DNA from: Chryseobacterium nakagawai
GTDB lineage: Bacteria; Bacteroidota; Bacteroidia; Flavobacteriales; Weeksellaceae
DNA length: 64,000 nucleotides
Direction of reading: 5' to 3'
Assembly (NCBI RefSeq): GCF_900637665.1
Contig: NZ_LR134386.1
Span: forward strand, 1,046,501 to 1,110,500
Both the position numbers and the translations under genes were made by a program. Within the stretch, counting starts at the first letter, position 1. Every line of letters starts with the position of its first letter. The notes beneath the pieces are model-generated. The model was given only the letters and a program-made list of their open reading frames with translations, made no database searches and was not told where the DNA came from. Positions 24,582 through 53,648 of this stretch are shown here, one piece after another.

Positions 24582-25297
24582 AAGAATTCTGGGCAGAACT
24601 ATCCCGTACCGATGATGATTATCTAGGCTCTATACGAGACTGGAAGAACGTTCATGTTGCAACAGATGATGAAATTATATGGCTCAAAGGTTTCACTGAG
24701 GAACAGACATTGTCATCAGAAATTCATCAGCTGCCTAACTTTTTACTCTACGAGCTTCGGGATGGGCTTTTATTTAAAAAAGAAGCATTGGTTCCCAGTA
24801 AAAAGATGAGAACAGGATTGCTTTGGACACCCATTGATAAAGCATTACGCCTTACTTTTCCAGCTTCTAACCAAAACTATTTTGGGATTCGTGAAAAGAT
24901 TCAGATCAGATTAAAAGAAAGTAAGGAAGAACATTCGGTTATTGCTTTGATAAGCGTAATTACAGAGGTCAAACAGAGTATTGTGACACTGCCAAAATTC
25001 AGATTGGATAAAATAGAATGGACTGTAATAGAAGAGAAAGTTCTTTTTTTAGGAACCCCACTATTAAGCCTGCCAGGAAAAACATATTGGACAAAAGACG
25101 GACACCTTTTGCCTTCCGGTTTTGATTTTGAATTTAAAAATCTGAGCAAGCTCTTACAACAGAAATATAATAAAATGTCAGATGGATGGCTTTTATGGGA
25201 TGAGGAAGGGAATTATCTTGAAATAAAGAAAACAGATTTCCGACCATTATCTGTAAGTTCATTCCGTCTTACTGAAAAATCAAGAGAATGGAATTAA
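24554..25297 (+). CDS. bpX-like component of the MoxR-vWA ternary system
   Basis: The 247-residue protein overlaps the MoxR gene by 28 bases and the vWA gene by 10. It is rich in beta-prone segments with spaced Trp and Leu residues and has no signal peptide. Position and size fit one of the bpX domain proteins that accompany MoxR and vWA in these systems. That assignment is from context, since I see no unmistakable motif. A substrate-presenting or signal-sensing role is possible. Confidence 0.6.
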   Translation: MAENSSDDIKEFWAELSRTDDDYLGSIRDWKNVHVATDDEIIWLKGFTEEQTLSSEIHQLPNFLLYELRDGLLFKKEALVPSKKMRTGLLWTPIDKALRLTFPASNQNYFGIREKIQIRLKESKEEHSVIALISVITEVKQSIVTLPKFRLDKIEWTVIEEKVLFLGTPLLSLPGKTYWTKDGHLLPSGFDFEFKNLSKLLQQKYNKMSDGWLLWDEEGNYLEIKKTDFRPLSVSSFRLTEKSREWN

Positions 25298-27660
25298 AGG
25301 CCTATTTCCAATCCTATGAAAACTACTTTTGGGAATGGAAAACTGATGAAGATGTTCCCGGAGACTCCGGATATAATGACAATAACCTCCTCTCCATCCC
25401 AGGAGTAGGAGCAATTGCTTATAGACCTTATATCATAGAAATTCTGAAAGACCTTCAGGATCAGGGATGGCCTCCGTTCGGTGCTTTGCTGATGGTTTTA
25501 TATGCCATGCAAGATGGCTATACAGACTTTGCTGGTCCTTTAAGATATACTACAGATTTTTATAGCATGGGGAATTTTGAATTCAATGCTGAAAAAGAGA
25601 TTGAATTTCTTGAAAAAATAAAGGCACTTCCTAAGGTTTACAAACAGAAGCAGAACAAAATCGTATTATTGCGGACTTTATTTAAAGATTGTCATAACAG
25701 AATATCTTCTGCAAATGCTGAAGCTCATTTAAGAATTTATTCCAAAAGACCTCAGGAATTAGCTGTAAGTGCAGAGAAACAAGATGCAGGACCATCCGTT
25801 TTGAATAAAGATCTCACGGCAATGGATCTCAATAAAAAATTTCCAACCGTACAATCCATCATTGAGGCCATGAAAGGGCTAATCGAAGAGCCAGAATTGA
25901 TTGATGAGGTTGTAGAAGAGCAAGCTACTACAGATACAGACTTTATCAGAGAGCTGATAGAAGAACCCAAAACATTCCAGGTAGGAAGCTTAATCAAAAG
26001 AATCTGGAGCGGACTTAAAATTCCAATGCGCCACCTTTCTCCGGGAGAACAGCCTGTTGGAGGTATCTCAGATATGACCAATAAAGGAGACTTTCATAGA
26101 ATGCTTTTGTCTGAGTTTGCGAATGAAGACGATTTATTTATGAGCCGCGTAGCCAATAATGAAGCATTATACATCCAAAGAGAGATACCGCCCGAAGAAA
26201 ATATTTTTGAAAGAATTATTCTGATTGATACTTCCTTGAGAAACTGGGGAACTCCAAAAGTATTGGCATTTGCTTCAGCGATTGCGATAATTAAACATCC
26301 AAAAGCTCATTCAGAATGTAAAGTAATAGCATTGGGACAGACAGGTGTTGCTATTTCTCTGAATAAAGTGGAAGAGGTAGTTGAAAACCTTAATCAGGTC
26401 AGTCCGGTTTTGGAGGTTTCAGAAGCTTTAGATAATTTTTTTAACGAAGATTATCCTCAGAAAGATATTGAAGTATTTTTCATTACCCATCAGGAGAACT
26501 TTGAAGATGAAAAAATCCAGAAAGTAGTTCATCAAAATAGAGACAGGCTGAAGTTTTTGGTGGCTACTTCTTCAGAGGGAGAAATTAACTTTTATAAGCA
26601 TCATAAAGGAGCACGGAAACACATCCAGAAAATAAAACTTCCCCTTCATGAGTTGTGGGCTAACCCACCACAGCAAAAAAGAAAAGAAAACAATTCTAAT
26701 GGAAAGAAAACTGATCTTCCATTGAATTATCCGATCCTGTTCCCAACACCGGTTAATAAGATTGCCCAGTTTTTATACGAAGGAGAGTTTTTTATTCTGA
26801 GTTCAAAAAAACAATTGTTGAAAACTTATCTTTCTGATAATTATTACGACAGGCACACCTATGATTATTATAAAACATATCATGGTTGTGAAGTGATGAT
26901 TGAAGATATTTCTGTAAAGCGAACAGGACAATTTGCCCTGGCAAAAAATAAACAGCAGCATTTTATCCTCTGCCAATATCAACCCTCCAGAAAATTAGTA
27001 TCTAAACTTAATGTAAATACAAGAGAATATTCTGAGATCAATGTTACCGGATTGAATATTCCTGATGACTATGAACTGATTTATTTTGGGAAAAGCTTCT
27101 ATCTTCACGAGTTTAACAATCCTTTACTTTATAAAATAAATATTGAAGGAAATACCTCTGTTGAGCCTTTGGATAATAAATACGATGATATAGATAAAAA
27201 CACCACAAAAGTAAATACTGAAGTAGCCAAGTTAAACCGGAGTGGATTAAAAATTATCGGTAATTTTAATAAAATCGGTATTAATGCCCATGATAATCTG
27301 GTTTTTTCAGGATTTGAAATAAATAGTGTATATGAAAATACCCTGAATCTTTATAAAAACAGATATGATATTAAGATTTTTGCGGAACAGAATAAAAATA
27401 AATATACTTTCCCTGACGGAAGCGAGGTCATTGCAGATTCCCGAGGAATATTGACATTCAGAAGCAGTAACAAAGGAATTGAAGAGTTTTATATGCCTAC
27501 TACAACATATGGCTTCTTAGCCATAGCTACCTATACAGAGTTTGGCGGATCAGAATATTATCTTCCGGAACATACGCTATTGAAGGTGAGAACAATGGAC
27601 GAAATGTATAATCACTATGTAAAGCCGTTTATAGAGCAGATTTTGGATTATGGAGCTTAG
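25288..27660 (+). CDS. Large vWA protein with bpX-like and beta-propeller-like regions
   Basis: This 790-residue protein has a helical N-terminal part (residues 1-150), an acidic linker, and a vWA-like domain starting near residue 308 with ILIDTSLRNWG. The metal-ion-dependent adhesion site is degenerate there (D-T-S-L-R instead of DxSxS). From about residue 480 on it has repetitive beta-rich segments with ELIYFGKSFYLHEF-type strands, fitting a propeller. Such proteins are the effector or scaffold partner of MoxR ATPases. It overlaps both neighbours. A biological-conflict role follows from the published view of these ternary systems and is not proven here. Confidence 0.75.
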   Translation: MELKAYFQSYENYFWEWKTDEDVPGDSGYNDNNLLSIPGVGAIAYRPYIIEILKDLQDQGWPPFGALLMVLYAMQDGYTDFAGPLRYTTDFYSMGNFEFNAEKEIEFLEKIKALPKVYKQKQNKIVLLRTLFKDCHNRISSANAEAHLRIYSKRPQELAVSAEKQDAGPSVLNKDLTAMDLNKKFPTVQSIIEAMKGLIEEPELIDEVVEEQATTDTDFIRELIEEPKTFQVGSLIKRIWSGLKIPMRHLSPGEQPVGGISDMTNKGDFHRMLLSEFANEDDLFMSRVANNEALYIQREIPPEENIFERIILIDTSLRNWGTPKVLAFASAIAIIKHPKAHSECKVIALGQTGVAISLNKVEEVVENLNQVSPVLEVSEALDNFFNEDYPQKDIEVFFITHQENFEDEKIQKVVHQNRDRLKFLVATSSEGEINFYKHHKGARKHIQKIKLPLHELWANPPQQKRKENNSNGKKTDLPLNYPILFPTPVNKIAQFLYEGEFFILSSKKQLLKTYLSDNYYDRHTYDYYKTYHGCEVMIEDISVKRTGQFALAKNKQQHFILCQYQPSRKLVSKLNVNTREYSEINVTGLNIPDDYELIYFGKSFYLHEFNNPLLYKINIEGNTSVEPLDNKYDDIDKNTTKVNTEVAKLNRSGLKIIGNFNKIGINAHDNLVFSGFEINSVYENTLNLYKNRYDIKIFAEQNKNKYTFPDGSEVIADSRGILTFRSSNKGIEEFYMPTTTYGFLAIATYTEFGGSEYYLPEHTLLKVRTMDEMYNHYVKPFIEQILDYGA

Positions 27661-29350
27661 AATAAAACCTTTCCCGAAAAATAAATACCCTAAAAAAGGA
27701 CTTTTGATAAAAGGCTCTTCACCTTTGGTATGGCTTCAGGAAATGGAAACGTTAGGAATAGCACTTAATGGCGTGAAATCTTATGCTGTTCCAGCCAATA
27801 GTCCCAATGTATTGTATGGATGCTTTCTTGTATTTGATGATTATGCTCCGCAGGAAATTGGAAGAAATGCTTATTTCCAATGCGTAGATAATAAACTTTT
27901 TATTCCCGAAAACACAACATTGTATCCTAAGATCAATCCTGAAGACTGGGATACAGTAGAGGCAGGCTTTCTCATAATGCATCCTGAATTTGGATTGGTA
28001 AAACTGCTAGAAGAGATCAATTGGATTGAATTGATTCAGGATCCGGAGATCATAAAAGAAACCATCAAAAAACCTTTGAATGGAGTCAAAATTCCACAAA
28101 TCATACAAAGCTATACGGTGGAAATCGATGAGGAAAAAATGCTTGAAGCATTACAGAATCCCCCAACCAAAGAAGAATGGATGAATAACCTGCCGTTTGA
28201 TCTGAAGAAAGTAATGGCTGGAAACAAAAAAGAAATTGAAAAATATTTAAAATACATAGAAAAATACCCTGAAAGAGCTATAGAATTAGGAGTTCCTTTA
28301 GATATCATGGGTACTTCCAGGGGAGATGGATTTGGTAAATTTACCTGGTTGGAGGGGCTATTTGGAGGAGGAACGGATAGTAAACAGGAAAGTACCAATA
28401 CCAGGAATTTCCGCAGAATATTCTGGGCCGTTATTGTCATTGCAATTGTTTTAAAAATAGCTTTACCATCCAATGAAAATAAGCCCCAGCAGGAAGAAAA
28501 TAAGGTGTCCTCAGGAACTATTGTAACAGATGCTGTAAAAGCCCCTGCAGATATGATTGCTTTTCATTCAGGAGTCTCTGAAATAGATATGAAGATAGAT
28601 TCTCTGTACTACAGTAAAAGGAAAAGCTTGTCCAATGAACTCCTGAACGCAGGAATGCAGGAAAGTAAGACAAAAAAAGAAAAAGAAGAATATAAAAGGG
28701 CAGGGGGAAGAGAAGTAAATGAAATAGGACACGATATTCAAAAGCTAAGTAATAAAGAGCAACAAAGCCGAGACTCTCTTAAAACCATTTATACAAGAGT
28801 TATAACCAAACATATTAAGGAAAGAAGTGAGGCGCTGAAACGGAAAATTTCAGATTCTTTAAAACAATACACCAAAGGAAAACCGGTAAATGGAGAGGTG
28901 GTGAAATATCTTTTAAAGAAAAAGCAGGTTCTGATGCAAGACTCTTTAGGAAAATTATACGGAACCATTGATATGACTGATAGGTCACCTCCATCTACCA
29001 TTAAAGATTCTAAAGTAAAGGGAGTAGAATCAAGTAGTAACTCGATGAAGAAAGACACTCCTGTTTTCGATATATTATATATGGTGATTCTGATGATTGC
29101 AGCGGTTGGTTTGTATTCTTTCATGTTTAAAAATAAATCATTAAATCTTGGAGGAGATAATGTTCCGGGATGGGTGAAATTCTTTTTGATTGTGATTCTC
29201 GTAGCTATGTTGGTGTATCTGTTTTATCCTTTGGTTAAAATGTTTGGCTACAACTGGTTTGTATGGATACTTGCTATTGGGGTGATGCTACTGCTTTACC
29301 GTTTGTTCAGAGATGATAAAAGCATTTTAAAATCCGATGATGATGAATAA
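27650..29350 (+). CDS. Membrane-anchored component of the MoxR-vWA system, bpX6-like
   Basis: This 566-residue protein has an N-terminal beta-rich soluble domain (about residues 1-130) and a helical linker. A transmembrane segment lies near residues 257-275, followed by a long charged coiled region with many Lys, Glu and Ser. Three hydrophobic segments near residues 475, 505 and 535 are close to the C-terminus. It would hold the system at the inner membrane. It overlaps the vWA gene by 11 bases and the next gene by about 14. Family assignment rests on context. Confidence 0.65.
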   Translation: MELRIKPFPKNKYPKKGLLIKGSSPLVWLQEMETLGIALNGVKSYAVPANSPNVLYGCFLVFDDYAPQEIGRNAYFQCVDNKLFIPENTTLYPKINPEDWDTVEAGFLIMHPEFGLVKLLEEINWIELIQDPEIIKETIKKPLNGVKIPQIIQSYTVEIDEEKMLEALQNPPTKEEWMNNLPFDLKKVMAGNKKEIEKYLKYIEKYPERAIELGVPLDIMGTSRGDGFGKFTWLEGLFGGGTDSKQESTNTRNFRRIFWAVIVIAIVLKIALPSNENKPQQEENKVSSGTIVTDAVKAPADMIAFHSGVSEIDMKIDSLYYSKRKSLSNELLNAGMQESKTKKEKEEYKRAGGREVNEIGHDIQKLSNKEQQSRDSLKTIYTRVITKHIKERSEALKRKISDSLKQYTKGKPVNGEVVKYLLKKKQVLMQDSLGKLYGTIDMTDRSPPSTIKDSKVKGVESSSNSMKKDTPVFDILYMVILMIAAVGLYSFMFKNKSLNLGGDNVPGWVKFFLIVILVAMLVYLFYPLVKMFGYNWFVWILAIGVMLLLYRLFRDDKSILKSDDDE

Positions 29351-30362
29351 ACAGAAATTTATAGACAAGTTCATGGCTGCTTTTGTCCTGCTGGCTATGT
29401 TTAAGATTATCGGAATCGTAGCCCAGCTGTTCCATGAAAGTTTTTGGAGCGTAGTCGGAAATTTAGTCATTTTTTTAATTGTGGCATTTATTCTGTTAAT
29501 GGTCATTACTTCTTTAAAGGATAAAGAACAAAACAAACAGAATTCAGGAAGGGGAGGAGCTGGAGGAGGAAACTTCTATTTGGAAAATTCACTATTTGAC
29601 AGGATTAGAAGTAAATATGAAGACCTTGCCCAAAAGTACCTTGCAGAAAAAGATTATAAAAAAGCGGCAAAAGTGTATATGAATTTACTTCAAGATTATT
29701 ACAGAGGGGCAAAAGCATTGGAAGACGGTGGATTTTATAATGAGGCAGCAGCAGTATATCTTAAAAAACTTAAAAGTAAATCTGATGCAGCGAATTGTTA
29801 TGAAAAGGCAAAGCAATATAAAAAAGCCATTGACCTGTACAAAGAAATGGAACAGAAAGAAAAAGTAGGTGATCTTTACAAAGAGATTAATGAGCTGAAA
29901 AATGCCCATATCTATTACCAGATGGTAGCGGATGATTATATAACCAATAATCAGATGGTGAAAGCTTCATTGGTATACCGTAAAAAAATGGAAAAGCCGG
30001 GAGATGCTCAAAAAGTATTATTAAAAGGCTGGGAAGAAGATAAAGATGCCTTCAATTGTCTCAATAATTACTTTGCGAATATCTCTGATACTAAAAAACT
30101 GGAAGCCGAAATCCAGGTTATGTATGAAAAAACTCCGGCCTATAAAAAACTCATCTATCTGGAAGCAATGAAGTATGAGTTTAAAAAAGACCTCAAAGTA
30201 CAGTCTGTTACAAGAAGAATAGCTTATGAGATCGTTGCTGAAAAAGTAGAAAGCCGTTCAGAAATTGTTAACGAGTTGAAACATTTCAACCCTAAAGATG
30301 AAGTGATCCTTAAAGATATCTCAAGATTCAAGACCGGAAGAAATAAAATGTTTAGAAATTAA
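29337..30362 (+). CDS. Membrane protein with TPR-like helical repeats, last gene of the MoxR operon
   Basis: Three in-frame ATGs lie at 29337, 29340 and 29343. The 341-residue protein has two transmembrane helices in the first 60 residues and a Gly-rich linker (GRGGAGGG). About 230 residues of helix pairs such as KYLAEKDYKKAAKVYMNLL follow and look like TPR or SEL1-like repeats. It is probably a membrane-tethered protein-interaction scaffold. It overlaps the preceding gene and ends the operon; about 200 bp without a clear gene follow. Confidence 0.7.
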   Translation: MMMNKQKFIDKFMAAFVLLAMFKIIGIVAQLFHESFWSVVGNLVIFLIVAFILLMVITSLKDKEQNKQNSGRGGAGGGNFYLENSLFDRIRSKYEDLAQKYLAEKDYKKAAKVYMNLLQDYYRGAKALEDGGFYNEAAAVYLKKLKSKSDAANCYEKAKQYKKAIDLYKEMEQKEKVGDLYKEINELKNAHIYYQMVADDYITNNQMVKASLVYRKKMEKPGDAQKVLLKGWEEDKDAFNCLNNYFANISDTKKLEAEIQVMYEKTPAYKKLIYLEAMKYEFKKDLKVQSVTRRIAYEIVAEKVESRSEIVNELKHFNPKDEVILKDISRFKTGRNKMFRN

Positions 30363-30568
30363 AGGATAAAAATAAAATGATAATACATTTAAATATATCC
30401 AATATAAATATGCAAGGTGAGCTATTCATGCAACTTGAAAAACTTGATGAAGAAATAGAGTAAAACTCTGTGTTTCAAAAACACATAATTCAGCCGTTAA
30501 AAGCAATCATAGAATCCTTTTTTTATTACTCTTCCATGTGAGAATTATAAAAAATAACAAAAAAGATT

Positions 30569-30576
30569 TATCTTTG
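30569..30576 (+). promoter_or_regulatory. -7 element before leader ORF 1
   Basis: TATCTTTG matches TAnnTTTG exactly. A start of transcription about 7 bases later leaves only a few untranslated bases before the ATG at 30589. Confidence 0.6.
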
Positions 30577-30588
30577 CACCAGAAAATT

Positions 30589-30717
30589 ATGACAATACAA
30601 AGAGCACATATCAATGCAGAACTATTCGAAAGTCCTTCTAATAAAGGATTATTAGGATATGATGAAGGGGTATGGAATGAGGCGAAATGTGCTGACTTTG
30701 GAAATTATTTACTATAA
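30589..30717 (+). CDS. Leader ORF 1: 42-codon peptide containing all 20 amino acids
   Basis: The ORF runs from ATG 30589 to TAA 30717. It has a strong -7 element just upstream and an intrinsic terminator starting 29 bases after the stop. Translation by hand gives 42 residues in which every one of the twenty amino acids occurs at least once; nineteen (all but Cys) occur within the first 30 codons. Codons 31-32 (GAGGCG, 30679-30684) are complementary to CGCCTC in the 5' arm of the terminator (30751-30756). A ribosome delayed earlier in the ORF would leave GAGGCG free to pair and prevent termination. I infer an attenuation leader sensing shortage of almost any aminoacyl-tRNA. An ordinary small protein cannot be excluded. 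Confidence 0.7.
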   Translation: MTIQRAHINAELFESPSNKGLLGYDEGVWNEAKCADFGNYLL

Positions 30718-30756
30718 ACTTGTAAAAAATTAATCAAAATACAGCAAAAACGCCTC
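30679..30756 (+). promoter_or_regulatory. Putative antiterminator pairing, leader 1
   Basis: GAGGCG (30679-30684, within the leader coding region) can pair with CGCCTC (30751-30756), the terminator 5' arm. This 6-bp all-but-one GC helix is mutually exclusive with the terminator stem. Confidence 0.5.
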
Positions 30757-30776
30757 GATTTTTCGAGGCGTTTTTT
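30746..30776 (+). terminator. Attenuator terminator 1
   Basis: CGCCTCGA (30751-30758) pairs perfectly with TCGAGGCG (30763-30770) over a TTTT loop. The A run before and six Ts after extend it. It is a strong intrinsic terminator. Confidence 0.85.
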
Positions 30777-31002
30777 GTTTTTTAGGTCAGAAATTATTTA
30801 GAATGAAAAAAAATAACCATAAACATGAAAATTTTTTAATTAACAATGCAACTTTAATACAATAAAATAGAGTGATAAGTAACCCGATGAGAGACAGTCA
30901 TTTAGGTAATTAAGATATCTGCAAAAGATTGCGGACAGAAATCGCTTATTCTTAATTTTGCATGTAATTAACTGATTATCAATAATTTAATTTTAAAATT
31001 TA

Positions 31003-31034
31003 TTTGCAGATTCCAAAAAATCATATTTACTTTG
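31003..31034 (+). promoter_or_regulatory. Promoter before leader ORF 2
   Basis: A TTTG at 31003-31006 and TACTTTG at 31028-31034 are spaced by 21 bases, the normal spacing for the housekeeping sigma factor of Bacteroidetes. It would give an untranslated leader of about 65 bases ahead of the ATG at 31105. The region 30777-31002 shows only AT-rich DNA and a GCAAAAGATTGCGG stretch at 30921. Confidence 0.5.
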
Positions 31035-31104
31035 CAACCGAAAATTGAAAGCAACAGGTTTTCAGGATTCAACAAAAAATAATTTAGAAACAAACAAAAA
31101 TAAA

Positions 31105-31230
31105 ATGAAACAATTTCATAACATACTCAATCAATATTCAAGACTATTCGGACAGGAGCCGACAGGGACAGTGTGTGCTTATGATTGTGAATTTGTGGAT
31201 AAAAGGTGCTTATATACGTGGGTCAGCTAA
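31105..31230 (+). CDS. Leader ORF 2: 41-codon peptide containing all 20 amino acids
   Basis: The ORF runs from ATG 31105 to TAA 31230; a non-ATG extension to 31045 is not convincing. By hand translation all twenty amino acids occur, nineteen of them (all but Trp) within the first 33 codons. Codons 34-36 start with AGGTGCTT (31204-31211), which can pair over eight positions, one of them G-U, with AAGCGCCT of the terminator 5' arm (31255-31262). Both peptide content and attenuator geometry repeat those of leader 1 although the two peptides are otherwise unrelated. The tRNA-His gene begins three bases after the terminator's T run. This supports control of the tRNA array by translation of the leader. 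Confidence 0.7.
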   Translation: MKQFHNILNQYSRLFGQEPTGTVCAYDCEFVDKRCLYTWVS

Positions 31231-31262
31231 TGATCTTTCACGTTAAAAAATATGAAGCGCCT
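31204..31262 (+). promoter_or_regulatory. Putative antiterminator pairing, leader 2
   Basis: AGGTGCTT (31204-31211) pairs with AAGCGCCT (31255-31262) across a 43-base loop. It would exclude the terminator stem. A ribosome reaching the stop codon at 31228 would mask the upstream strand and favour termination. Confidence 0.5.
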
Positions 31263-31285
31263 CCCGAAAAGAGGCGCTTTTTTTT
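31255..31285 (+). terminator. Attenuator terminator 2
   Basis: AAGCGCCTC (31255-31263) pairs perfectly with GAGGCGCTT (31271-31279) around CCGAAAA, then eight further Ts follow. The core CGCCTC/GAGGCG is shared with attenuator 1. Confidence 0.88.
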
Positions 31286-31287
31286 AT

Positions 31288-31359
31288 GGTTTCTTTAGCT
31301 TATTTGGTAAAGCGCCGGTCTGTGGAACCGGAGAACAGGGTTCGATCCCCGAAGATACC
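31288..31359 (+). tRNA. tRNA-His(GTG)
   Basis: Anticodon arm CCGGT-CTGTGGA-ACCGG; G at -1 opposite the discriminator C, the His identity pair. The acceptor stem GTTTCTT/AAGATAC has one T-T mismatch and the T stem has one A-C mismatch, so it departs from a housekeeping tRNA. It is the first gene of the array. Confidence 0.8.
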
Positions 31360-31369
31360 CAAAATATAA

Positions 31370-31443
31370 AATCTCATAGCTCAAATGGTTAGAGCACCGG
31401 TCTTTTAAACCGGGGGTTGAAAGTTCAAATCTTTCTGGGATTA
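31370..31443 (+). tRNA. tRNA-Lys(TTT)
   Basis: Acceptor AATCTCA/TGGGATT, anticodon arm CCGGT-CTTTTAA-ACCGG, T arm GAAAG-TTCAAAT-CTTTC, discriminator A followed by an encoded CCA. Well formed with a single G-U in the acceptor. Confidence 0.88.
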
Positions 31444-31449
31444 CCAAAC

Positions 31450-31523
31450 GGTTCCGTAGCTCAACCGGATAGAGCATGGGTTTTCTAAACCCAGGGTTAG
31501 AGGTTCGAATCCTTTCGGAATCA
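31450..31523 (+). tRNA. tRNA-Arg(TCT)
   Basis: Acceptor GGTTCCG/CGGAATC, anticodon arm TGGGT-TTTCTAA-ACCCA, T loop TTCGAAT. Well formed, no encoded CCA. Confidence 0.88.
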
Positions 31524-31529
31524 CAAAAT

Positions 31530-31600
31530 GGTCTATTGAGGTAATGGTAACCTGCCCGACTGTCTCTTGGGCACTGCGAGTTCGATTCTCGCATAGACCG
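31530..31600 (+). tRNA. tRNA-Asp(GTC), unusual anticodon loop
   Basis: Perfect acceptor GGTCTAT/ATAGACC and discriminator G. D arm AGGT-AATGGTA-ACCT, anticodon arm CCCGA-CTGTCTC-TTGGG. Position 37 is T where a purine is nearly universal. Confidence 0.78.
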
Positions 31601-31603
31601 CAA

Positions 31604-31660
31604 AGATTCGTAGAAAGTTTTGCTCCGGCTGTCTCCCGGAAAAGAATTGAAGTGAATCTG
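31604..31660 (+). other. Armless tRNA-like hairpin
   Basis: AGATTCG and TGAATCT can form a 7-bp acceptor-like stem, and TCCGG-CTGTCTC-CCGGA a 5-bp stem with the same 7-base loop as the preceding tRNA-Asp. D and T arms are missing; the total length is only about 57 bases. It may be a decayed tRNA or chance. Confidence 0.3.
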
Positions 31661-31665
31661 TAAAA

Positions 31666-31737
31666 CTGGAAAGATAACGGTGGTTGTTTACCCGTCTTGG
31701 ACGCGGGAGGTCGCAAGTTCGAATCTTGCTTTCCAGA
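31666..31737 (+). tRNA. tRNA-Pro(TGG)
   Basis: Perfect acceptor CTGGAAA/TTTCCAG beginning with C1, anticodon arm CCCGT-CTTGGAC-GCGGG, T arm GCAAG-TTCGAAT-CTTGC. The D stem is only three pairs and the usual T8 is G. Confidence 0.82.
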
Positions 31738-31740
31738 CGA

Positions 31741-31829
31741 AATGATAAGTAATAAATAATGAGTAATAAGCAATAATGCATAGAAAGGAGTTTTCAATAT
31801 TACTCATCACCAATTACTCATTACTCATA
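31741..31829. repeat. AT-rich inverted repeat of the array, copy 1
   Basis: AATAATGAGTAATAAGCAAT faces ATTACTCATTACTCATAA on the other side of a short spacer. Similar palindromes recur at 32513, 32851, 33158 and 33333, always between array genes. Confidence 0.6.
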
Positions 31830-31837
31830 AAACCGCT

Positions 31838-31910
31838 GCGGGAATGGTGGAACGGTAGACACACTTGATTTAGGATCAAGGCGCTGAGGGTTCGAATCCC
31901 TCTTCCCGTA
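31838..31910 (+). tRNA. tRNA-Leu(TAG) without the long variable arm
   Basis: Acceptor GCGGGAA/TTCCCGT, Leu-like D arm, anticodon arm CTTGA-TTTAGGA-TCAAG, T arm GAGGG-TTCGAAT-CCCTC. The variable region is only GCGCT, whereas bacterial tRNA-Leu is class II with a long extra arm, and total length is 73 instead of about 85. Confidence 0.8.
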
Positions 31911-31915
31911 CAAAA

Positions 31916-31987
31916 GATTTTGTAGCTCAATGGTAGAGCGCTGGTCTGTTAAACCAGAAGTTGGAAGTTCGAATCTTCCCGGAATCG
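31916..31987 (+). tRNA. tRNA-Asn(GTT)
   Basis: Acceptor GATTTTG/CGGAATC with two G-U pairs, anticodon arm CTGGT-CTGTTAA-ACCAG, discriminator G as expected for Asn. Confidence 0.87.
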
Positions 31988-32022
31988 CAGTAACTAAATG
32001 TTAATTGTTTCAGGAGAAAAAT

Positions 32023-32090
32023 AAAGTTTGTCAAGAGCAGAAGATCTTTACATCAAAAAAACACAAGAAAATACAGACAAACTTTTTTCT
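32023..32090 (+). ncRNA. Array hairpin element E1
   Basis: AAAGTTTGTC (32023-32032) pairs with GACAAACTTT (32076-32085), followed by a T tract. The loop starts AAGAGCAGAAGATCTTTA, conserved in E2 to E5, while the stem bases change in a paired manner. Confidence 0.6.
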
Positions 32091-32151
32091 TTCTCAATAA
32101 TACAGTTACAAGTGAAAGAAAAATATGATTAATACAATTTTAGGTAAAAAT

Positions 32152-32212
32152 AAAGTCTGTCAAGCGCAGAAGTTCTTATATCAAGCAAAAATATAGACAG
32201 ACTTTGTTTTTT
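32152..32212 (+). ncRNA. Array hairpin element E2
   Basis: AAAGTCTGTC (32152-32161) pairs with GACAGACTTT (32196-32205). Compared with E1, one T-A pair has become C-G, a compensatory change. Loop AAGCGCAGAAGTTCTTA, T tract behind. Confidence 0.6.
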
Positions 32213-32271
32213 TGAATAATAAACATCAAAAATTATTCATTACCTGTTGCTTATTCCTCATGTTAAAATCT

Positions 32272-32353
32272 GATGGTTCGCCGAAGTGGAAGAGTCGGGG
32301 CGGTCTGCAAAACCGTTGCGTAAGCTGAGTGGGTTTGAATCCCATAACCATCT
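32272..32353 (+). tRNA. tRNA-Cys(GCA) with a long variable arm
   Basis: Acceptor GATGGTT/AACCATC, discriminator T (the Cys identity base), anticodon arm GCGGT-CTGCAAA-ACCGT. The variable region is 12 bases (TGCGTAAGCTGA). The D arm CCGA...TCGG and neighbourhood closely resemble the tRNA-Tyr two genes on, suggesting descent from a Tyr gene. Confidence 0.78.
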
Positions 32354-32443
32354 CAATGTAAAGCTGGAAATTGTAATGTTAGAAGATGATCCATCAACTA
32401 TCATTCATTAATTATAGCTAAAAATATCCTTTATTAAGAAAAG

Positions 32444-32510
32444 AAAATGTCTGTCAAGCGCAGAAGATCTTTAAGCCAAAACACAAAATACAGACAGGCT
32501 TTTTCTTTTT
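32444..32510 (+). ncRNA. Array hairpin element E3
   Basis: GTCTGTC (32449-32455) pairs with GACAGGC (32493-32499) through one G-U, with outer A-T pairs. Loop AAGCGCAGAAGATCTTTA, then a T tract. Confidence 0.6.
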
Positions 32511-32512
32511 AT

Positions 32513-32576
32513 AAGTAATGGGCAATAAGCAATGAATGATAAATTAGCCATCATCAATTACTCATTACTCATAAAG
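32513..32576. repeat. AT-rich inverted repeat of the array, copy 2
   Basis: AATGGGCAATAAGCAATGAA faces ATTACTCATTACTCATAA; same family as the repeat at 31741. Confidence 0.5.
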
Positions 32577-32582
32577 AAATCC

Positions 32583-32666
32583 GGAAGTACGCCGAAGTTG
32601 GAGAGTCGGGGCAGACTGTAAATCTGTTGCTTCATTGCTGAGTAGGTTCGAATCCTACTACTTCCA
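32583..32666 (+). tRNA. tRNA-Tyr(GTA)
   Basis: Perfect acceptor GGAAGTA/TACTTCC, anticodon arm GCAGA-CTGTAAA-TCTGT, class II variable region of 14 bases, T arm GTAGG-TTCGAAT-CCTAC. A normal bacterial Tyr form. Confidence 0.88.
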
Positions 32667-32671
32667 CCCAA

Positions 32672-32742
32672 CCGCTGATAATGTAATGGCAGCATGCAGG
32701 AAATGTACTCTTGTTGTTTAGGTTCGATTCCTAGTCAGTAGG
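32672..32742 (+). tRNA. tRNA-Thr(TGT), degenerate
   Basis: Acceptor CCGCTGA/TCAGTAG has one C-A mismatch and one G-U. Anticodon arm CAGGA-AATGTAC-TCTTG places A at position 33, where U is almost invariant. T arm TTAGG-TTCGATT-CCTAG is good. It may be nonfunctional in translation. Confidence 0.6.
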
Positions 32743-32788
32743 TCAAAAAGAAGAAAATATTAAATGCTCAATATAATTTTCGAAAGAA

Positions 32789-32852
32789 AGGCTTGTCAAG
32801 CGTAGAAGATCTTTTTGTTAAGCAAATTTAAAGACAAGCTTATTCTTTTTAT
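32789..32852 (+). ncRNA. Array hairpin element E4
   Basis: GGCTTGTC (32790-32797) pairs with GACAAGCT (32833-32840). Loop AAGCGTAGAAGATCTTT, T-rich tail. Confidence 0.6.
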
Positions 32853-32915
32853 AATGGATGATGGGCAATAAGTAATTAATAATATAAAATAGTATCACTT
32901 ACCCATTGCTTATAA
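32851..32915. repeat. AT-rich inverted repeat of the array, copy 3
   Basis: ATGGGCAATAAGTAAT faces ACTTACCCATTGCTTAT; related to the other array palindromes. Confidence 0.45.
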
Positions 32916-32919
32916 AAAC

Positions 32920-32991
32920 GCTCTATTCGTCTAACGGTAAGGACGCCTGCCTTTCGAGCAGAAAACAAGGGTTCGATTCCCTTATAGAGTA
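32920..32991 (+). tRNA. tRNA-Glu(TTC)
   Basis: Acceptor GCTCTAT/ATAGAGT (G1-U72 pair), anticodon arm CCTGC-CTTTCGA-GCAGA with the outermost pair lost, T loop TTCGATT, discriminator A. Confidence 0.8.
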
Positions 32992-33095
32992 CTGAATGTG
33001 AATGACTGGTCAATACATAATTGATATAATACCATGAAAGTTCAGATTTAAAAAAATATTGGCCAGTTGCCATTCACACAAAATGAAGAAAAGAG

Positions 33096-33157
33096 AAAAG
33101 GTTTGTCAAGCGTAGAAGATCTTTAGTCAATAAAAACAGACAACCTTTTACTTTTTA
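33096..33157 (+). ncRNA. Array hairpin element E5
   Basis: AAAAGGTTTGTC (33096-33107) pairs with GACAACCTTTT (33139-33149) leaving one bulged T. Loop AAGCGTAGAAGATCTTTA, T-rich tail. Confidence 0.55.
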
Positions 33158-33246
33158 TAATGAACAATAAGTAATGAACAATAAGTAATGAATGATAGAA
33201 AAGTAGTTTTCATCATTACTCATCACTAATTACTTATTACTCATAA
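33158..33246. repeat. AT-rich inverted repeat of the array, copy 4
   Basis: Two tandem GAACAATAAGTAAT units face ACTAATTACTTATTACTCAT across a spacer. Confidence 0.5.
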
Positions 33247-33250
33247 AATA

Positions 33251-33324
33251 GGGAAGAGTGGTGTACTTGGTGTGCACGTTAGTCTGAAAAACTAAAGGTA
33301 CAGGTTCAATTCCTGTCTGTTCCG
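33251..33324 (+). tRNA. tRNA-Phe(GAA), degenerate acceptor
   Basis: Anticodon arm TTAGT-CTGAAAA-ACTAA is perfect and the T arm ACAGG-TTCAATT-CCTGT good. The acceptor GGGAAGA/CTGTTCC has two mismatches and two G-U pairs, and the discriminator is G instead of A. Confidence 0.68.
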
Positions 33325-33332
33325 CAAGAACA

Positions 33333-33417
33333 TGAACGATAAGTAATATAATGAGTGATCTTTGATACTTGATTGTTTTTAAACATTCCTCATTATCCAT
33401 TACTTATTGCTCATGAA
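33333..33417. repeat. AT-rich inverted repeat of the array, copy 5
   Basis: CATGAACGATAAGTAATA faces CCATTACTTATTGCTCATGAA between tRNA-Phe and tRNA-Gln. Confidence 0.45.
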
Positions 33418-33423
33418 TTAATC

Positions 33424-33496
33424 TGATTCATAGTGTAATTGGTCAGCACACAAGATTTTGATTCTTGGAGTTTAGGTTCGAGTCCTAATGAATTAA
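33424..33496 (+). tRNA. tRNA-Gln(TTG)
   Basis: Acceptor TGATTCA/TGAATTA begins with the weak U1-A72 pair typical of tRNA-Gln. Anticodon arm CAAGA-TTTTGAT-TCTTG, T arm TTAGG-TTCGAGT-CCTAA. Well formed. Confidence 0.85.
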
Positions 33497-33504
33497 CAAC
33501 ATTT

Positions 33505-33575
33505 ACTCTGATATTGTAATGGTAGCATCTCAGTCTCCAAAACTGATGGTATTGGTTCGAGTCCAGTTCGGAGTG
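33505..33575 (+). tRNA. tRNA-Trp(CCA)
   Basis: Acceptor ACTCTGA/TCGGAGT, anticodon arm TCAGT-CTCCAAA-ACTGA, discriminator G as expected for Trp. Last gene of the array, 126 bases before the first protein gene of the operon. Confidence 0.87.
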
Positions 33576-33700
33576 CAACAAGTAAACAGTGAACTTTGCC
33601 AGGCAAGTGAATTTTTAAAATTAGCTGCAAAGTGGATTAACTGTTTACAAATTAATTATCAACAATCATTTATCAATTATAAATTAAAGTATGTAAAAAA

Positions 33701-34186
33701 ATGGAAACGCAACAACAAACATGGCAGAATATGAAAGGAAAATTTTTCCAACATTCTATCACACAGCTGGTAGAAGAAGCCATTATTCGCGAACAGGCAA
33801 ACGGACATCGTCTGAAAGTATGTGTGGGATCAGACTCTCACGTATATGGAGAAGCTATTAATTATGCTACGGCAGTAGTATTTATTCGTGAAGGAAAAGG
33901 AGCGTTTACCTTTATCAGAAAAGAAAGAGAAATACAGACCATCAGTATTAAAGAGCGAATGCTGAATGAAGTCAACAAATCTGTTGAAATTGCTTACGCA
34001 ATTTGTTCTGTATTGGATACTTATGGAGTAGAAATGGAGGTACACGCAGACATCAATACCGATCCTGATTTTAAATCCAATGCAGCATTAAAAGATGCAA
34101 TGGGATACATTCTGGGAATGGGATATGTGTTTAAAGCAAAACCTTTTGCCTTCGCAAGTTCCAACTGTGCTGATATGATGGTATAA
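33701..34186 (+). CDS. YkuK-family (DUF458) RNase H-like protein
   Basis: This 161-residue protein contains KVCVGSDSHVYG near residue 45 and DINTDPDFKSNAALKDAMGYI later, the conserved acidic blocks of the YkuK/DUF458 family, which has an RNase H-like fold. A nuclease acting on RNA or RNA-DNA is expected. It directly follows the tRNA array with no terminator in between, and 90 bases later comes the ATP-grasp gene. Its position suggests trimming or degrading damaged array or tRNA transcripts, which is inference. An inner ATG at 33731 is an alternative start. Confidence 0.8.
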   Translation: METQQQTWQNMKGKFFQHSITQLVEEAIIREQANGHRLKVCVGSDSHVYGEAINYATAVVFIREGKGAFTFIRKEREIQTISIKERMLNEVNKSVEIAYAICSVLDTYGVEMEVHADINTDPDFKSNAALKDAMGYILGMGYVFKAKPFAFASSNCADMMV

Positions 34187-34276: not shown

Positions 34277-35053
34277 ATGTATTTCTTAATTCAGTCGAAT
34301 ATATATTCAGATCCGGACCATTATAAAATTTTTGATGCGCTGGAAGAATTAAATATTGAATATAAGGCCATTAATATTCAGCCAACGGCTGATAAGGTAG
34401 ATTTTGAGACAGATCGAAAAGATATTTTTGTGTATGGTTCTGTGACCATTGCAAGGCTGGCCAAAAAGAAATCAGATTGGTATCCAGGTTCTTTTTACGG
34501 AGGTAGTCATTTATATGAGATCTATTCTCAATATTATGGTGAAAACCTTTTGAATGATAAGATTTCTGTTCATACAATTTCAGAAGAATTGTTATGGGAA
34601 AAAGATGAAGAAAAATTTATCAAACCTTATCATGAAGCGAAAATTTTTACAGGAAAGGTTTTTACTGAATCAGAATGGAAGGATTTCGTTTTTGAAAGAT
34701 TAGAAAATCAAAGTAATAGGATTACAGCAGATTCTTTAATCCAGGTTTCTAAAGCAAAGCAAACCCTAAAAGAAGCAAGACTTTGGATCGTTGGTGGGCA
34801 AATTGTTGATAGTGGTTATTATAAACTTAATGATAATGTTCCTTTCGAAGAAAATGTTTCAAGGGACGGATTAGGTTTTGCTAAAGAAATGATTCAGTTG
34901 TTTAACCTTGCAGAAGCTTTTGTAATGGATATTTGTTTAACGGATGAAGGTTGGAAAATTGTTGAAATAAATTGCATCAACAGTTCCGGATTTTATCCCA
35001 ATACTAACGTGAAAAGTGTAATCAAAGCATTGAATATCTACTTTTCCAATTAA
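34277..35053 (+). CDS. ATP-grasp domain protein
   Basis: The 258-residue protein has ATP-grasp-like features in its second half: SKAKQTLKEARLWIVGGQIV, DGLGFAKEMIQLF and the metal/ATP block VMDICLTDEGWKIVEINCINSSG, with a Glu-Ile-Asn segment typical of the fold. Such enzymes join a carboxylate or phosphate to an amine or hydroxyl through an acyl-phosphate. It lies between YkuK and the cREC gene (17 bases), so it probably belongs to the RNA repair operon. The substrate is unknown; an RNA-end or protein ligase are both possible. Confidence 0.75.
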   Translation: MYFLIQSNIYSDPDHYKIFDALEELNIEYKAINIQPTADKVDFETDRKDIFVYGSVTIARLAKKKSDWYPGSFYGGSHLYEIYSQYYGENLLNDKISVHTISEELLWEKDEEKFIKPYHEAKIFTGKVFTESEWKDFVFERLENQSNRITADSLIQVSKAKQTLKEARLWIVGGQIVDSGYYKLNDNVPFEENVSRDGLGFAKEMIQLFNLAEAFVMDICLTDEGWKIVEINCINSSGFYPNTNVKSVIKALNIYFSN

Positions 35054-35069
35054 AAAATAAACCATAGAA

Positions 35070-35435
35070 ATGACCAAAAGACTATTATTTCTGGATGATA
35101 TACGATATCCGATTGAGGCATATCGTTATACCAAACAGGATATTTTTCTCAGAAGAGATTGGCATATCGTTCGAAATTACGATCAGTTTGTCAACAGAAT
35201 CCTGGAAAAGGGACTTCCGGAAATGATTTCTTTTGACCATGACCTTGCAGATGAACATTATCTGAAAACAGATACCGGTGAATTTGTGGAAAAAACAGGC
35301 TACGATTGTGCAAAATGGCTGATAGAATATTGTATGGATCATTATTTAGACCTACCCAAATTCTACTGTCATTCCATGAATACTGTAGGAAAGGAGAATA
35401 TTGAACGACTTTTAAAAAACTTTAAAAAATTGTAA
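35070..35435 (+). CDS. Cyclic-phosphate-processing receiver-like protein (cREC)
   Basis: The 121 residues resemble a CheY-like receiver fold with LFLDDIRYP near residue 7 and ISFDHDLADEHY near residue 53, then YDCAKWLIEY and FYCHSMN. The Asp-Asp and Asp-His-Asp sets plus the late His differ from phospho-receivers and match the cREC family. That family was predicted to process cyclic phosphates at RNA ends in repair systems. It shares a TAATG overlap with the next gene and sits three genes before the RNA ligase. This fits end-healing before ligation. Confidence 0.75.
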   Translation: MTKRLLFLDDIRYPIEAYRYTKQDIFLRRDWHIVRNYDQFVNRILEKGLPEMISFDHDLADEHYLKTDTGEFVEKTGYDCAKWLIEYCMDHYLDLPKFYCHSMNTVGKENIERLLKNFKKL

Positions 35436-36002: not shown

Positions 36003-37016
36003 ATGATTTTCAAAACATATAACTCTATAGAAAATGCTTACCAAACCCGCATGATCGATCAGATCAGGTTGCAGGGCTTTGGGGATGAGGTTTTCATCGT
36101 GCAGGAAAAAGTTCACGGTGCTAATTTCTCTTTCTTTACCGACGGAAAGGAAATTAAGATCGCAAAAAGAACAGCTTTCATTGAAAAAGAAGAAAAATTT
36201 TACAATGCACATCAGATTTTGGAACAATACAGAAAAAATGTAATTAATTTATTTCAAAAAGTGAAAACAATATACCCGAATGTTGAGACAGTAGTCATCT
36301 ACGGTGAATTATTCGGTGGAAGTTACAATCATAAAGAAGTAGAACCAGTAGAAAATGCGATAAAAGTGCAAAAAGGAATTGAATATGCACCTTACAACGA
36401 TTTTTATGCATTTGACATTAAGTTGAATGGAGTCACTTATTTGGATACAGATATCATCAACTCAATTTTTGAGAAGACCGGATTTTTCTATGCTAAAACT
36501 TTGTTTGAAGGAACTTTAGAAGAAGCTTTAAGATTCCCGAATGTTTTCAATTCTAAAATCCCAACCTGGTTAGGATTACCGGAAATGAACAACATGTGTG
36601 AAGGAACCATTATTAAGACCCTAAAAACTAAATATTTCGGAAACGGAGCCAGAGTCATTCTAAAAAATAAGAATGAAAAATGGATTGAAAAATCTAAAAT
36701 GGTAAAAAAAGAGAGAAAAGCTACTCAAAAACAGGTTGATTTTAGTGAAACGGCTCAAAATATCTGGGGGGAGATTCAACAATATGTAACAGCAAACAGA
36801 TTGAATAATGTCGTGAGCAAAATTGGTGAATTTGAACCCAAAATGATAGGGAAAGTAATAGACCTTTTTGCACAGGATATTTTAGAAGATTTTGAAAAAG
36901 ATTTTCCAGCTGTTTTCACAACCATAGAAAAAGATGAGCATAAAAGGATCAACAAAAAGTTGAACTCTTTAGTCATTGATTGTATAAAAGAAGAGTTAAT
37001 GACTCTTAAAGTCTAA
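36003..37016 (+). CDS. Rnl2-type RNA ligase
   Basis: The 337-residue protein shows the nucleotidyltransferase motifs in order: motif I EKVHG with Lys36 as adenylation site, the IYGELFGG motif near residue 98, a YAFDIKL segment, EGTIIK near residue 200 and ILKNKN as motif V. The EKVHG...NF context is that of T4 RNA ligase 2 rather than DNA ligase. It would seal a 3'-OH to a 5'-phosphate in nicked RNA, for instance a tRNA cut in the anticodon loop. The C-terminal 110 residues are an additional helical domain. It is the last gene before a terminator, in an operon headed by fourteen tRNAs. Confidence 0.9.
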   Translation: MIFKTYNSIENAYQTRMIDQIRLQGFGDEVFIVQEKVHGANFSFFTDGKEIKIAKRTAFIEKEEKFYNAHQILEQYRKNVINLFQKVKTIYPNVETVVIYGELFGGSYNHKEVEPVENAIKVQKGIEYAPYNDFYAFDIKLNGVTYLDTDIINSIFEKTGFFYAKTLFEGTLEEALRFPNVFNSKIPTWLGLPEMNNMCEGTIIKTLKTKYFGNGARVILKNKNEKWIEKSKMVKKERKATQKQVDFSETAQNIWGEIQQYVTANRLNNVVSKIGEFEPKMIGKVIDLFAQDILEDFEKDFPAVFTTIEKDEHKRINKKLNSLVIDCIKEELMTLKV

Positions 37017-49550: not shown

Positions 49551-49554
49551 ATTT

Positions 49555-53545: not shown

Positions 53546-53630
53546 AGGAGCTTATTCCCGCTTTCCGCTATATCTTTTTCGCCTTTCTTAGGTCAATTCA
53601 GAAAAAGGATGCCGCTGCAATCGGGGCTAG
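53546..53630. repeat. Dispersed intergenic element, copy 2
   Basis: GGAGCTTATTCCCGCTTTCC starts the element and GCCGCTGCAATCGGGGCTAG ends it. ATCTTTTTC and GAAAAAGGAT pair inside, CCCG and CGGG outside. Related to 12608-12696. It fills much of the gap between the TROVE gene and the next ORF. Confidence 0.55.
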
Positions 53631-53648
53631 TAAATGAAGAGATAGATT

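What the first reader, a model, noticed from the sequence alone, without database searches (positions are those of the whole stretch)
30560..31290. Two tandem attenuator leaders whose peptides each contain all twenty amino acids
Seen: ORFs 30589-30717 (42 aa) and 31105-31230 (41 aa) each use every amino acid. Each is followed within 24-29 bases by a strong intrinsic terminator, and the second terminator ends three bases before a 14-gene tRNA array. The peptides are otherwise unrelated in sequence, so the shared property is composition. A back-of-envelope estimate with ordinary amino-acid frequencies gives roughly 1% chance for one such 41-mer and about 1 in 10,000 for both. Known leader peptides (trp, his, leu) repeat one or a few codons. 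A leader sampling all twenty would report depletion of any charged tRNA, which fits a downstream operon of tRNAs and RNA repair enzymes.
Basis: partly seen in the sequence, partly recalled or inferred. Interest (0 to 1): 0.96.

Follow-up and report, generated by a model that had tools for sequence, protein, structure and literature searches.

The report
All-amino-acid attenuator guards reserve tRNAs
Ahead of a cluster of 14 tRNA genes, this bacterium carries two short reading frames that each use all twenty amino acids and are each followed by a transcription stop signal; together they likely act as a gauge that would switch on these probably spare tRNAs, and predicted RNA-repair genes behind them, when almost any charged tRNA runs short.

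Summary
Both leader ORFs (30589-30717, 31105-31230) use all 20 amino acids and are each followed by a terminator-like hairpin, the second lying directly before a 14-tRNA array. Both leaders recur in 88 of 94 loci of Chryseobacterium and kin (window included); the 6 loci without them also lack the array. The first 26 codons of leader 1 hold all 20 amino acids in 25 of 88 loci; none of 15,261 26-residue windows from 41 proteins of this 64-kb window exceeds 18. The codons after that form one arm of a predicted hairpin that encloses the stop codon and captures the terminator's 5' arm: an antiterminator. A stall at almost any earlier codon, or no translation, would let the array be transcribed; a ribosome reaching the end would allow termination. 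Independent losses of an amino acid from the leaders fall mostly in loci whose array lacks that tRNA. Four loci in three genera of another family carry tandem leaders with dissimilar peptides (17-19 kinds each) before tRNA arrays. I read this as a pan-amino-acid attenuator of a reserve-tRNA and RNA-repair operon. Translation and conditional readthrough are untested.

The parts
30569..30576 (+). predicted -7 promoter element TATCTTTG of leader 1 (P1)
   Evidence: TATCTTTG within 40 nt before the leader 1 ATG in 86 of 88 loci; the Bacteroidota promoter consensus is recalled, not from a call
30589..30717 (+). leader ORF 1, 42 codons, all 20 amino acids
   Evidence: 42 codons in 86 of 88 loci
30679..30756 (+). 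predicted antiterminator hairpin 1: ORF arm GAGGCG...TGCTG (codons 31-36), stop codon in the apical part, 3' arm CAGCA...CGCCTC (= 5' arm of terminator 1)
   Evidence: -22.3 kcal/mol in the window; basal helix 97.9% of cells paired in 80 sequences, one GC to AU change compensated in 3
30746..30775 (+). intrinsic terminator 1 (predicted)
   Evidence: 97.8% of cells paired, 17 both-side changes against 5.1 in shuffles
30803..30865 (+). small ORF MKKNNHKHENFLINNATLIQ between terminator 1 and P2, unexplained
   Evidence: 20-21 codons in 71 of 83 loci where the pattern found a start
30883..30937 (+). conserved element CCCGATGAGAGACAGTCATTTAGGTA with a following hairpin TCTGCA/TGCGGA, unexplained
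   Evidence: a GAGAGACAG element also lies between the two leaders of L245 and L246 but not of L272 and L273
31003..31034 (+). predicted promoter P2, TTTG-N20-TTACTTTG
   Evidence: TTTG-N19..21-TTACTTTG before leader 2 in 88 of 88 loci
31105..31230 (+). leader ORF 2, 41 codons, all 20 amino acids
31204..31262 (+). predicted antiterminator hairpin 2: ORF arm AGGTGCTTATAT.ACGTG (codons 34-39), stop codon in the loop, 3' arm ending AAGCGCCT (= 5' arm of terminator 2)
   Evidence: -20.2 kcal/mol in the window; basal helix 98.0% of cells paired in 82 sequences
31254..31280 (+). intrinsic terminator 2 (predicted)
   Evidence: 97.3% of cells paired, 21 both-side changes against 5.8 in shuffles
31288..33576 (+). 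array of 14 tRNA genes (His Lys Arg Asp Pro Leu Asn Cys Tyr Thr Glu Phe Gln Trp)
   Evidence: 57-77% identical to the fetched genomic tRNAs with the same anticodon, another anticodon loop in 11 of 14
33701..34186 (+). RNaseH_like protein (PF04308) directly after the array
   Evidence: present after the array in 87 of 87 leader loci, 0 of 6 loci without leaders
34277..35053 (+). ATP-grasp protein (R2K)
   Evidence: in 23 of 87 leader loci within about 10 kb
35070..35435 (+). cREC_REC, cyclic-phosphate processing receiver domain
   Evidence: in 73 of 87 leader loci
36003..37016 (+). T4 Rnl2-like RNA ligase
   Evidence: PF09414 and PF18043; in 57 of 87 leader loci

Best explanation
The two leaders are most likely ribosome-sensing transcription attenuators that would measure whether a ribosome can get through (nearly) every amino acid, and would let the downstream tRNA array and predicted RNA-repair genes be transcribed when it cannot. 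Shown by the sequences: each module is a conserved promoter-like element, a short ORF with 16-20 kinds of amino acid, a foldable hairpin made of the ORF's last codons plus stop codon plus the terminator's 5' arm, a terminator-like hairpin, and then (after the second module) the tRNA array. Inferred: a ribosome that reaches the last ~12 codons melts that hairpin, the terminator forms and transcription stops (OFF). If a charged tRNA needed for about codons 2-27 (leader 1) or 2-30 (leader 2) is missing, or if the leader is not translated, the hairpin, which is made first, stands, captures the terminator's 5' arm, and RNA polymerase reads on (ON). Inferred: the trigger in nature is tRNA damage (anticodon nucleases in phage or toxin conflicts) or starvation, and the output is a set of tRNAs different enough to replace the damaged ones, with an RNA ligase and other RNA-processing enzymes. 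The leader's list of amino acids follows what the array can supply.
For: Conservation: both leaders in 88 of 94 loci (93 loci found by the upstream SNAP-like gene, plus the window); the 6 without them also lack the array and the downstream genes. In five loci (L089, L093, L095, L097, L116) the unit lies 3.1-5.5 kb from the SNAP-like gene, and 5 of 7 genomes with a leader 1 match but no SNAP-like match keep leaders plus array, so leaders travel with the array. Composition: the first 26 codons of leader 1 hold 20/19/18/17/16 types in 25/22/24/13/4 of 88 loci; 0 of 15,261 26-residue windows of the window's proteins reach 19; P(20 in 26) about 6e-6. Structure: with the leader untranslated the ORF end pairs with the terminator's 5' arm (5 pairs or more) in 86 of 88 and 88 of 88 loci; a footprint scan puts the loss of this pairing at codons 27-30 in most leader 1 loci and 31-33 in most leader 2 loci, just past the point where leader 1's list is complete in those 25 loci. 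RNA constraint apart from peptide: a 2-nt insertion in leader 2 of L075 shifts the frame but the RNA arm is unchanged; ends of L205 leader 1 and L210 leader 2 are shifted too. Inventory match: tRNA in the array but amino acid absent from the leader in 1 of 916 cells (leader 1) and 11 of 916 (leader 2), against 43 and 76 of 824 when the tRNA is not in the array; margin-keeping swaps P = 0.007 and <0.0005, for 45 dereplicated loci 0.0055 and 0.0155; independent losses 12 of 13 and 27 of 33 in arrays lacking that tRNA, P = 2.7e-4 and 9.6e-4. Other family: four loci in three genera have two tandem leaders, 17-19 types each, with stop-spanning hairpins before tRNA arrays. The terminator 2 stem ends at most 12 nt before the first tRNA in 76 of 87 loci, leaving no room for a promoter.
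Against: No transcription, translation or starvation data. All-20 is not strict: Val is lost 21 times independently in leader 1 and Ala 17 times in leader 2; the window's own leader 1 has only 17 types in its first 26 codons (Cys, Val, Trp missing there). Leader 2 is less extreme: its first 30 codons hold 15-19 types, never 20, and its Trp lies at codon 39, past the predicted sensing stretch. In the other family Trp is missing from 7 of 8 leaders although L245 and L246 encode tRNA-Trp, and leader B of L245 lacks Arg although tRNA-Arg is there. Column shuffles: diversity is higher than shuffled over all leader 1 peptides but not within its clades, and not for leader 2 (P 0.17). dN/dS of codons 2-28 is 0.70 (leader 1; +1 and +2 frames 1.69 and 0.66) and 0.65 (leader 2), so purifying coding selection is weak by this measure. 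Antiterminator covariation is thin: leader 1 12 both-side cells against 6.9 in shuffles, leader 2 3 against 7.5. In minimum-energy folds of the whole free leader end the terminator, not the antiterminator, wins in 7 of 7 leader 1 and 4 of 7 leader 2 loci shown, and RNAalifold on the full alignments gives the terminators, so the ON state rests on the antiterminator forming first and persisting. L204 and L207 have lost the array yet each keeps one open leader with 20 types.
Confidence: 0.8

Rival explanations
1. The leaders sense translation inhibitors or slow ribosomes in general (as the toiL and whiB7 uORFs are reported to), and the amino-acid variety is a by-product of a 40-codon ORF.
For: The predicted default-ON logic would respond to any block of translation, antibiotics included. 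toiL is described as a uORF in which stalls anywhere unmask the gene (PMC12121999, passages read).
Against: A by-product does not explain 20 types in 26 codons, the match to the array's tRNAs, or 17-19 types in dissimilar leaders of another family.
Confidence: 0.12
2. Ordinary single-amino-acid attenuators, for example of the Rfam Phe_leader kind.
For: Leader 1 with its hairpins is a sub-threshold match to RF01859 Phe_leader, 46.1 bits against a cut-off of 55, E = 8e-6.
Against: No run of one amino acid; no Phe_leader hit over the cut-off in the window or in 20 loci; the downstream genes are tRNAs, not an amino-acid pathway.
Confidence: 0.03
3. Two conserved small proteins that act as proteins; terminators merely end their genes.
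For: Peptides are alike within the genus.
Against: Frame-shifted C termini occur while the RNA is kept; mutually exclusive hairpins across the stop codon; weak dN/dS signal; dissimilar peptides in another family.
Confidence: 0.05

Closest known systems
Ribosome-mediated transcription attenuation of amino-acid operons (trp, his, leu, phe type)
   Same: Short leader ORF, terminator, competing antiterminator, ribosome position as the predicted signal.
   Different: Known leaders use regulatory codons for the operon's own amino acid (PMC1183508, abstract seen in the listings); here 16-20 kinds are spread over the ORF, the product is tRNAs, and the antiterminator encloses the stop codon with no predicted protecting hairpin, so no translation would mean ON.
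toiL and whiB7 stress-sensing uORFs
   Same: A uORF whose stalls at several places are proposed to give the same output (PMC12121999, passages).
   Different: Those respond to ribosome-targeting drugs (whiB7 also to starvation, as cited there); toiL works on translation and Rho; the passages seen do not describe sampling of all amino acids.
tRNA array units and phage tRNA arrays
   Same: Clustered extra tRNAs of many specificities, proposed to counter tRNA-cleaving defences (PMC12803027 and PMC10264068, passages). Anticodon-loop differences from housekeeping tRNAs, as reported for phage tRNAs.
   Different: Here on a bacterial chromosome, behind attenuators, with RNA-repair genes; a term search of the M. 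avium paper's main text gave no occurrence of attenuat or leader.
RtcR-controlled RNA repair operon
   Same: RNA-repair genes induced by damaged tRNAs (PMC7790460, title and start of abstract seen in the listing).
   Different: There a protein activator is the regulator; here the predicted sensor is the leader RNA and its ribosome.

Membership tests
ribosome-mediated transcription attenuator | short leader ORF conserved upstream of the operon | tested here: met
   88 of 94 loci
ribosome-mediated transcription attenuator | intrinsic terminator between leader and operon | tested here: met
   predicted
ribosome-mediated transcription attenuator | antiterminator that excludes the terminator and overlaps the ribosome's path | tested here: met
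   predicted; covariation thin, and the terminator is the lower-energy state in most whole-RNA folds
ribosome-mediated transcription attenuator | regulatory codons for the operon's own product | tested here: met
   in the widened sense: amino acids whose tRNAs the array encodes are present in 915 and 905 of 916 cells
ribosome-mediated transcription attenuator | readthrough changes with ribosome stalling | not testable with these tools
   needs Term-seq or reporters
Rfam Phe_leader RF01859 | score at or above the curated cut-off | tested here: not met
   46.1 against 55 bits; none in 20 loci
T-box riboswitch | Rfam T-box match | tested here: not met
   no such match among the results
tRNA array | dense cluster of tRNA genes of many specificities | tested here: met
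   14 tRNAs in 2.3 kb; 3-17 in 87 loci
tRNA array as anti-nuclease reserve | tRNAs resist cleavage that hits housekeeping tRNAs | not testable with these tools
   only sequence difference shown: 57-77% identity, 11 of 14 anticodon loops differ

The most novel reading that the evidence does not exclude
An all-codon attenuator: a leader that a ribosome must read through every amino acid before it may shut the operon off, so that loss of any one charged tRNA turns on a matching bank of reserve tRNAs and RNA-repair enzymes; the leader's vocabulary evolves with the tRNA content of the bank.
Probability: 0.68. Interest if true: 0.95.

Novelty: new variant of a known kind. Interest (0 to 1): 0.92.

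Why it matters
Known attenuator leaders read one or a few amino acids. A leader that reads nearly all of them would be a compact gauge of total tRNA supply with default-ON logic, and would explain how a cell could deploy reserve tRNAs only when its own are cut. It makes chromosomal tRNA arrays testable as an inducible answer to tRNA-cleaving weapons, and the tie between leader vocabulary and array content offers a way to read from sequence which tRNAs a cell expects to lose.

Tried and rejected
Strict all-twenty rule: rejected, relatives lose Val and Ala often. Phe_leader membership: sub-threshold only. Peptide-level conservation as the whole story: rejected because of frame-shifted relatives. 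RNAalifold on the whole alignments gave the terminators, and on the shortened ones only part of the antiterminator; I therefore counted structures named from the window's own fold, which favours them over the slid controls. Column shuffles within clades and for leader 2: not significant. A codon-level match of isoacceptors was mostly uninformative because most leaders hold the codon anyway; Ile (ATC/ATT) and Thr in leader 2, Trp, Asp and Arg (AGA/AGG) in leader 1, and Arg (CGN) in leader 2 were associated at Fisher P < 0.05, uncorrected for relatedness. A permissive ARAGORN setting gave doubtful extra tRNAs, so the default calls were used. A viral-contig search with leader 1 confirmed no relative. 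The conserved GAGAGACAG element has one exact copy in the genome and one 3-mismatch site and stays unexplained. Rows dropped or added: 86 and 84 leaders were parsed automatically; L075 (both), L078 (leader 1), L079, L091 and L113 (leader 2) were added by hand; L031 was left out of array counts because its contig ends in the array; amino acids whose tRNA is in no array of the 87 were set apart; of the 27 matches only the four strong ones were looked at further, and of 22 loci outside the family held only two have an array. Four of the 95 tRNA matches were not fetched for the housekeeping set. L211 and L212 were fetched but not analysed.

Full report
Observation. The window is part of a 5.6-Mb single-contig genome. 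Exact matches to a leader 1 motif in a named collection are 63 Chryseobacterium records, one Epilithonimonas and one Weeksellaceae MAG (65 stretches).

What surrounds it. Upstream (22801-30362) lies a MoxR-vWA-beta-propeller ternary system operon (bpX4, bpMoxR, bpX2, bpX0/bpX1, bpX3) ending with a SNAP-like protein. Downstream come an RNaseH_like protein, an ATP-grasp protein, a cREC receiver domain, DinB_2, a T4 Rnl2-like RNA ligase, a metallo-beta-lactamase, a phosphoesterase, two RNase_T exonucleases and a PIF1-like helicase. In 87 of 87 leader loci whose contig goes on, the RNaseH_like gene follows the array; the RNA ligase is within the fetched stretch in 57 of 87 and the cREC gene in 73 of 87 (stretches are about 10 kb, so these are lower bounds).

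Conservation. The SNAP-like protein found 94 of 246 genomes sampled from the family, the window's own included. Of these 94 loci, 88 have both leaders, both terminators and an array; 6 have none of these. The gap from stop to hairpin is 28 nt in 72 of 88 for leader 1 and 23 nt in 48 of 88 for leader 2. A leader 1 profile matched 46 of 395 genomes of the order, all in two genera. Seven of these genomes have no SNAP-like match; five have leaders plus array, two (L204, L207) have no array. In L204 leader 1 is open with a shifted tail (44 codons, 20 types) and leader 2 stops after nine codons; in L207 leader 1 stops after 31 codons and leader 2 is open with 20 types.

Structure. The last 12 or so codons, the stop codon and the terminator's 5' arm fold into one long hairpin: -14.6 to -22.3 kcal/mol for leader 1 and -15.9 to -23.2 for leader 2 in the seven loci shown, next to terminators of -15.1 to -21.1 and -12.1 to -15.8. 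When the whole leader end is folded free, the terminator is the better state in 7 of 7 (leader 1) and 4 of 7 (leader 2), so the ON state depends on the antiterminator being made first. On 80 and 82 distinct sequences 89.2% and 90.5% of cells pair, against at most 47.1% and 58.4% when slid by 1-3 columns; the structure was taken from the window's own fold, which favours it. Covariation beyond shuffles is clear for the terminators, slight for antiterminator 1 and absent for antiterminator 2, whose ORF arm is nearly invariant. That arm stays intact in L075, where a 2-nt insertion changes the reading frame. With a ribosome footprint reaching 16 nt past the first P-site base, the last A-site codon that leaves at least five pairs to the 5' arm is 26-29 in 78 of 88 leader 1 loci and 30-32 in 54 of 88 leader 2 loci; the others give other, mostly later, codons, in the loci I looked at through short alternative pairings. 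Without a ribosome the ORF end pairs with the 5' arm in 86 of 88 and 88 of 88.

Composition. The first 26 codons of leader 1 hold all 20 amino acids in 25 of 88 loci, 19 in 22, 18 in 24, 17 in 13 and 16 in 4; the window itself has 17. Windows of 26 residues from 41 proteins of the 64-kb window number 15,261 and never exceed 18; the mean is 13.5 against 18.6. The exact i.i.d. chance is 5.9e-6 with the start Met fixed, 1.5e-5 for random 64% AT ORFs. These loci share ancestry, so this is evidence for a few events, not 25. Leader 2 is less extreme: its first 30 codons hold 19/18/17/16/15 types in 5/27/28/20/8 of 88. Across 70 distinct leader 1 peptides, Val is the only copy at eight different positions, Trp at three, Asp at four: the place moves while the kind stays. 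Shuffled columns give lower diversity over all leader 1 peptides (0 of 3000 as high) but not within clades, nor for leader 2.

Inventory match. For each of 87 loci and 20 amino acids I compared presence of the tRNA in the array with presence of the amino acid in the leader. With the tRNA present the amino acid is missing in 1 of 916 cells (leader 1) and 11 of 916 (leader 2); with the tRNA absent, in 43 and 76 of 824. Shuffles that keep array sizes and tRNA frequencies, dereplication to 45 loci, and counting independent losses on a tree of the SNAP-like protein all keep the association. The one contrary loss in leader 1 is His in L050. Of leader 2's six contrary losses, four concern Trp, which in the common form lies at codon 39, past the predicted sensing stretch, and two Thr. 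A simple rival, parallel decay of small arrays and leaders, is reduced but not excluded by the margin-keeping test.

Another family. The RNaseH_like protein was sought in 395 genomes of the phylum and 349 of another family of the order. Of 22 loci outside the window's family held, two (G310, G421) have a tRNA array beside the gene; on fetching, so do G1119 and G1020. All four loci have two tandem ORFs of 37-46 codons with 17-19 kinds of amino acid, each followed by a terminator-like hairpin and able to form a stop-spanning hairpin (for the second leaders I set the bounds of the 5' arm by hand, and longer in-frame starts exist in L245, L246 and L273). Their peptides share little with the Chryseobacterium leaders (8-15 identical residues in global alignments). 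The missing amino acids are W, W, W, W in the four first leaders and RVW, VW, G, HW in the four second ones. L272 and L273 have no tRNA-Trp, L272 no tRNA-Gly and L273 no tRNA-His, as the inventory idea expects; but L245 and L246 do have tRNA-Trp, and L245 tRNA-Arg, which is against a strict rule. Here arrays with tRNA-Val (L273), tRNA-Ala (L272) and tRNA-Gly (L245, L246, L273) also occur.

The tRNAs. The 14 array tRNAs are 57-77% identical to the fetched genomic tRNAs with the same anticodon, and 11 of 14 have a different seven-base anticodon loop (housekeeping tRNAs were read from the loci and the stretches). Parts resemble phage tRNAs: 358 phage records match stretches of the array, with a Lys-Arg pair of Stenotrophomonas phages at 73-74% over 140 bases. 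Resistance to anticodon nucleases is an inference by analogy with phage tRNAs (PMC10264068, passages).

Literature. Nine full-text searches of the held open-access library listed, in the rows shown, no leader peptide described as sampling all amino acids and no attenuated tRNA array. I read passages of PMC7159879, PMC10264068, PMC12121999, PMC9723704 and PMC12803027 only. Most subscription papers are not held; the 2016 RNA-repair survey by Burroughs and Aravind was not available.

Verdict. A conserved pair of attenuator-like modules whose leader vocabulary is near-complete and tied to the tRNAs downstream. Anatomy and conservation are shown; translation, conditional termination and the tRNA-depletion signal are inferred.

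Noticed in passing
window 30803-30865 and 30883-30937: Between terminator 1 and P2 sit a conserved 20-21 codon ORF (MKKNNHK...) and a near-invariant element CCCGATGAGAGACAGTCATTTAGGTA followed by a small hairpin; a GAGAGACAG element also lies between the leaders of L245 and L246.
   Followed up: partly
window 32029-33190 (five copies, motif starts 32029, 32158, 32452, 32794, 33104): Repeats between the tRNA genes: a stem closing a loop of about 40 nt with the motif TGTCAAGCGCAGAAGATCTT or near it; the motif occurs in 50 of 94 loci. Function unknown.
   Followed up: partly
window 22801-30362: MoxR-vWA-beta-propeller ternary system operon with bpX0-bpX4 domains directly upstream of the leaders.
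   Followed up: no
window 51921-53438 and 53550-53632 (-): TROVE/Ro60-like protein next to a Flavo-1 RNA; another Flavo-1 lies in L206 after the array.
   Followed up: no
L204, L207: Two genomes keep the leader region but have no tRNA array; in each, one of the two leaders is cut short and the other is open with 20 kinds of amino acid.
   Followed up: partly
window 54714-54809: ARAGORN calls a lone tRNA-Phe with anticodon AAA; Rfam at its gathering threshold does not report it, so it is probably false.
   Followed up: no
window 44339-50898: Two DUF6493/DUF7824/DUF7825 proteins followed by a SWIM zinc-finger protein.
   Followed up: no
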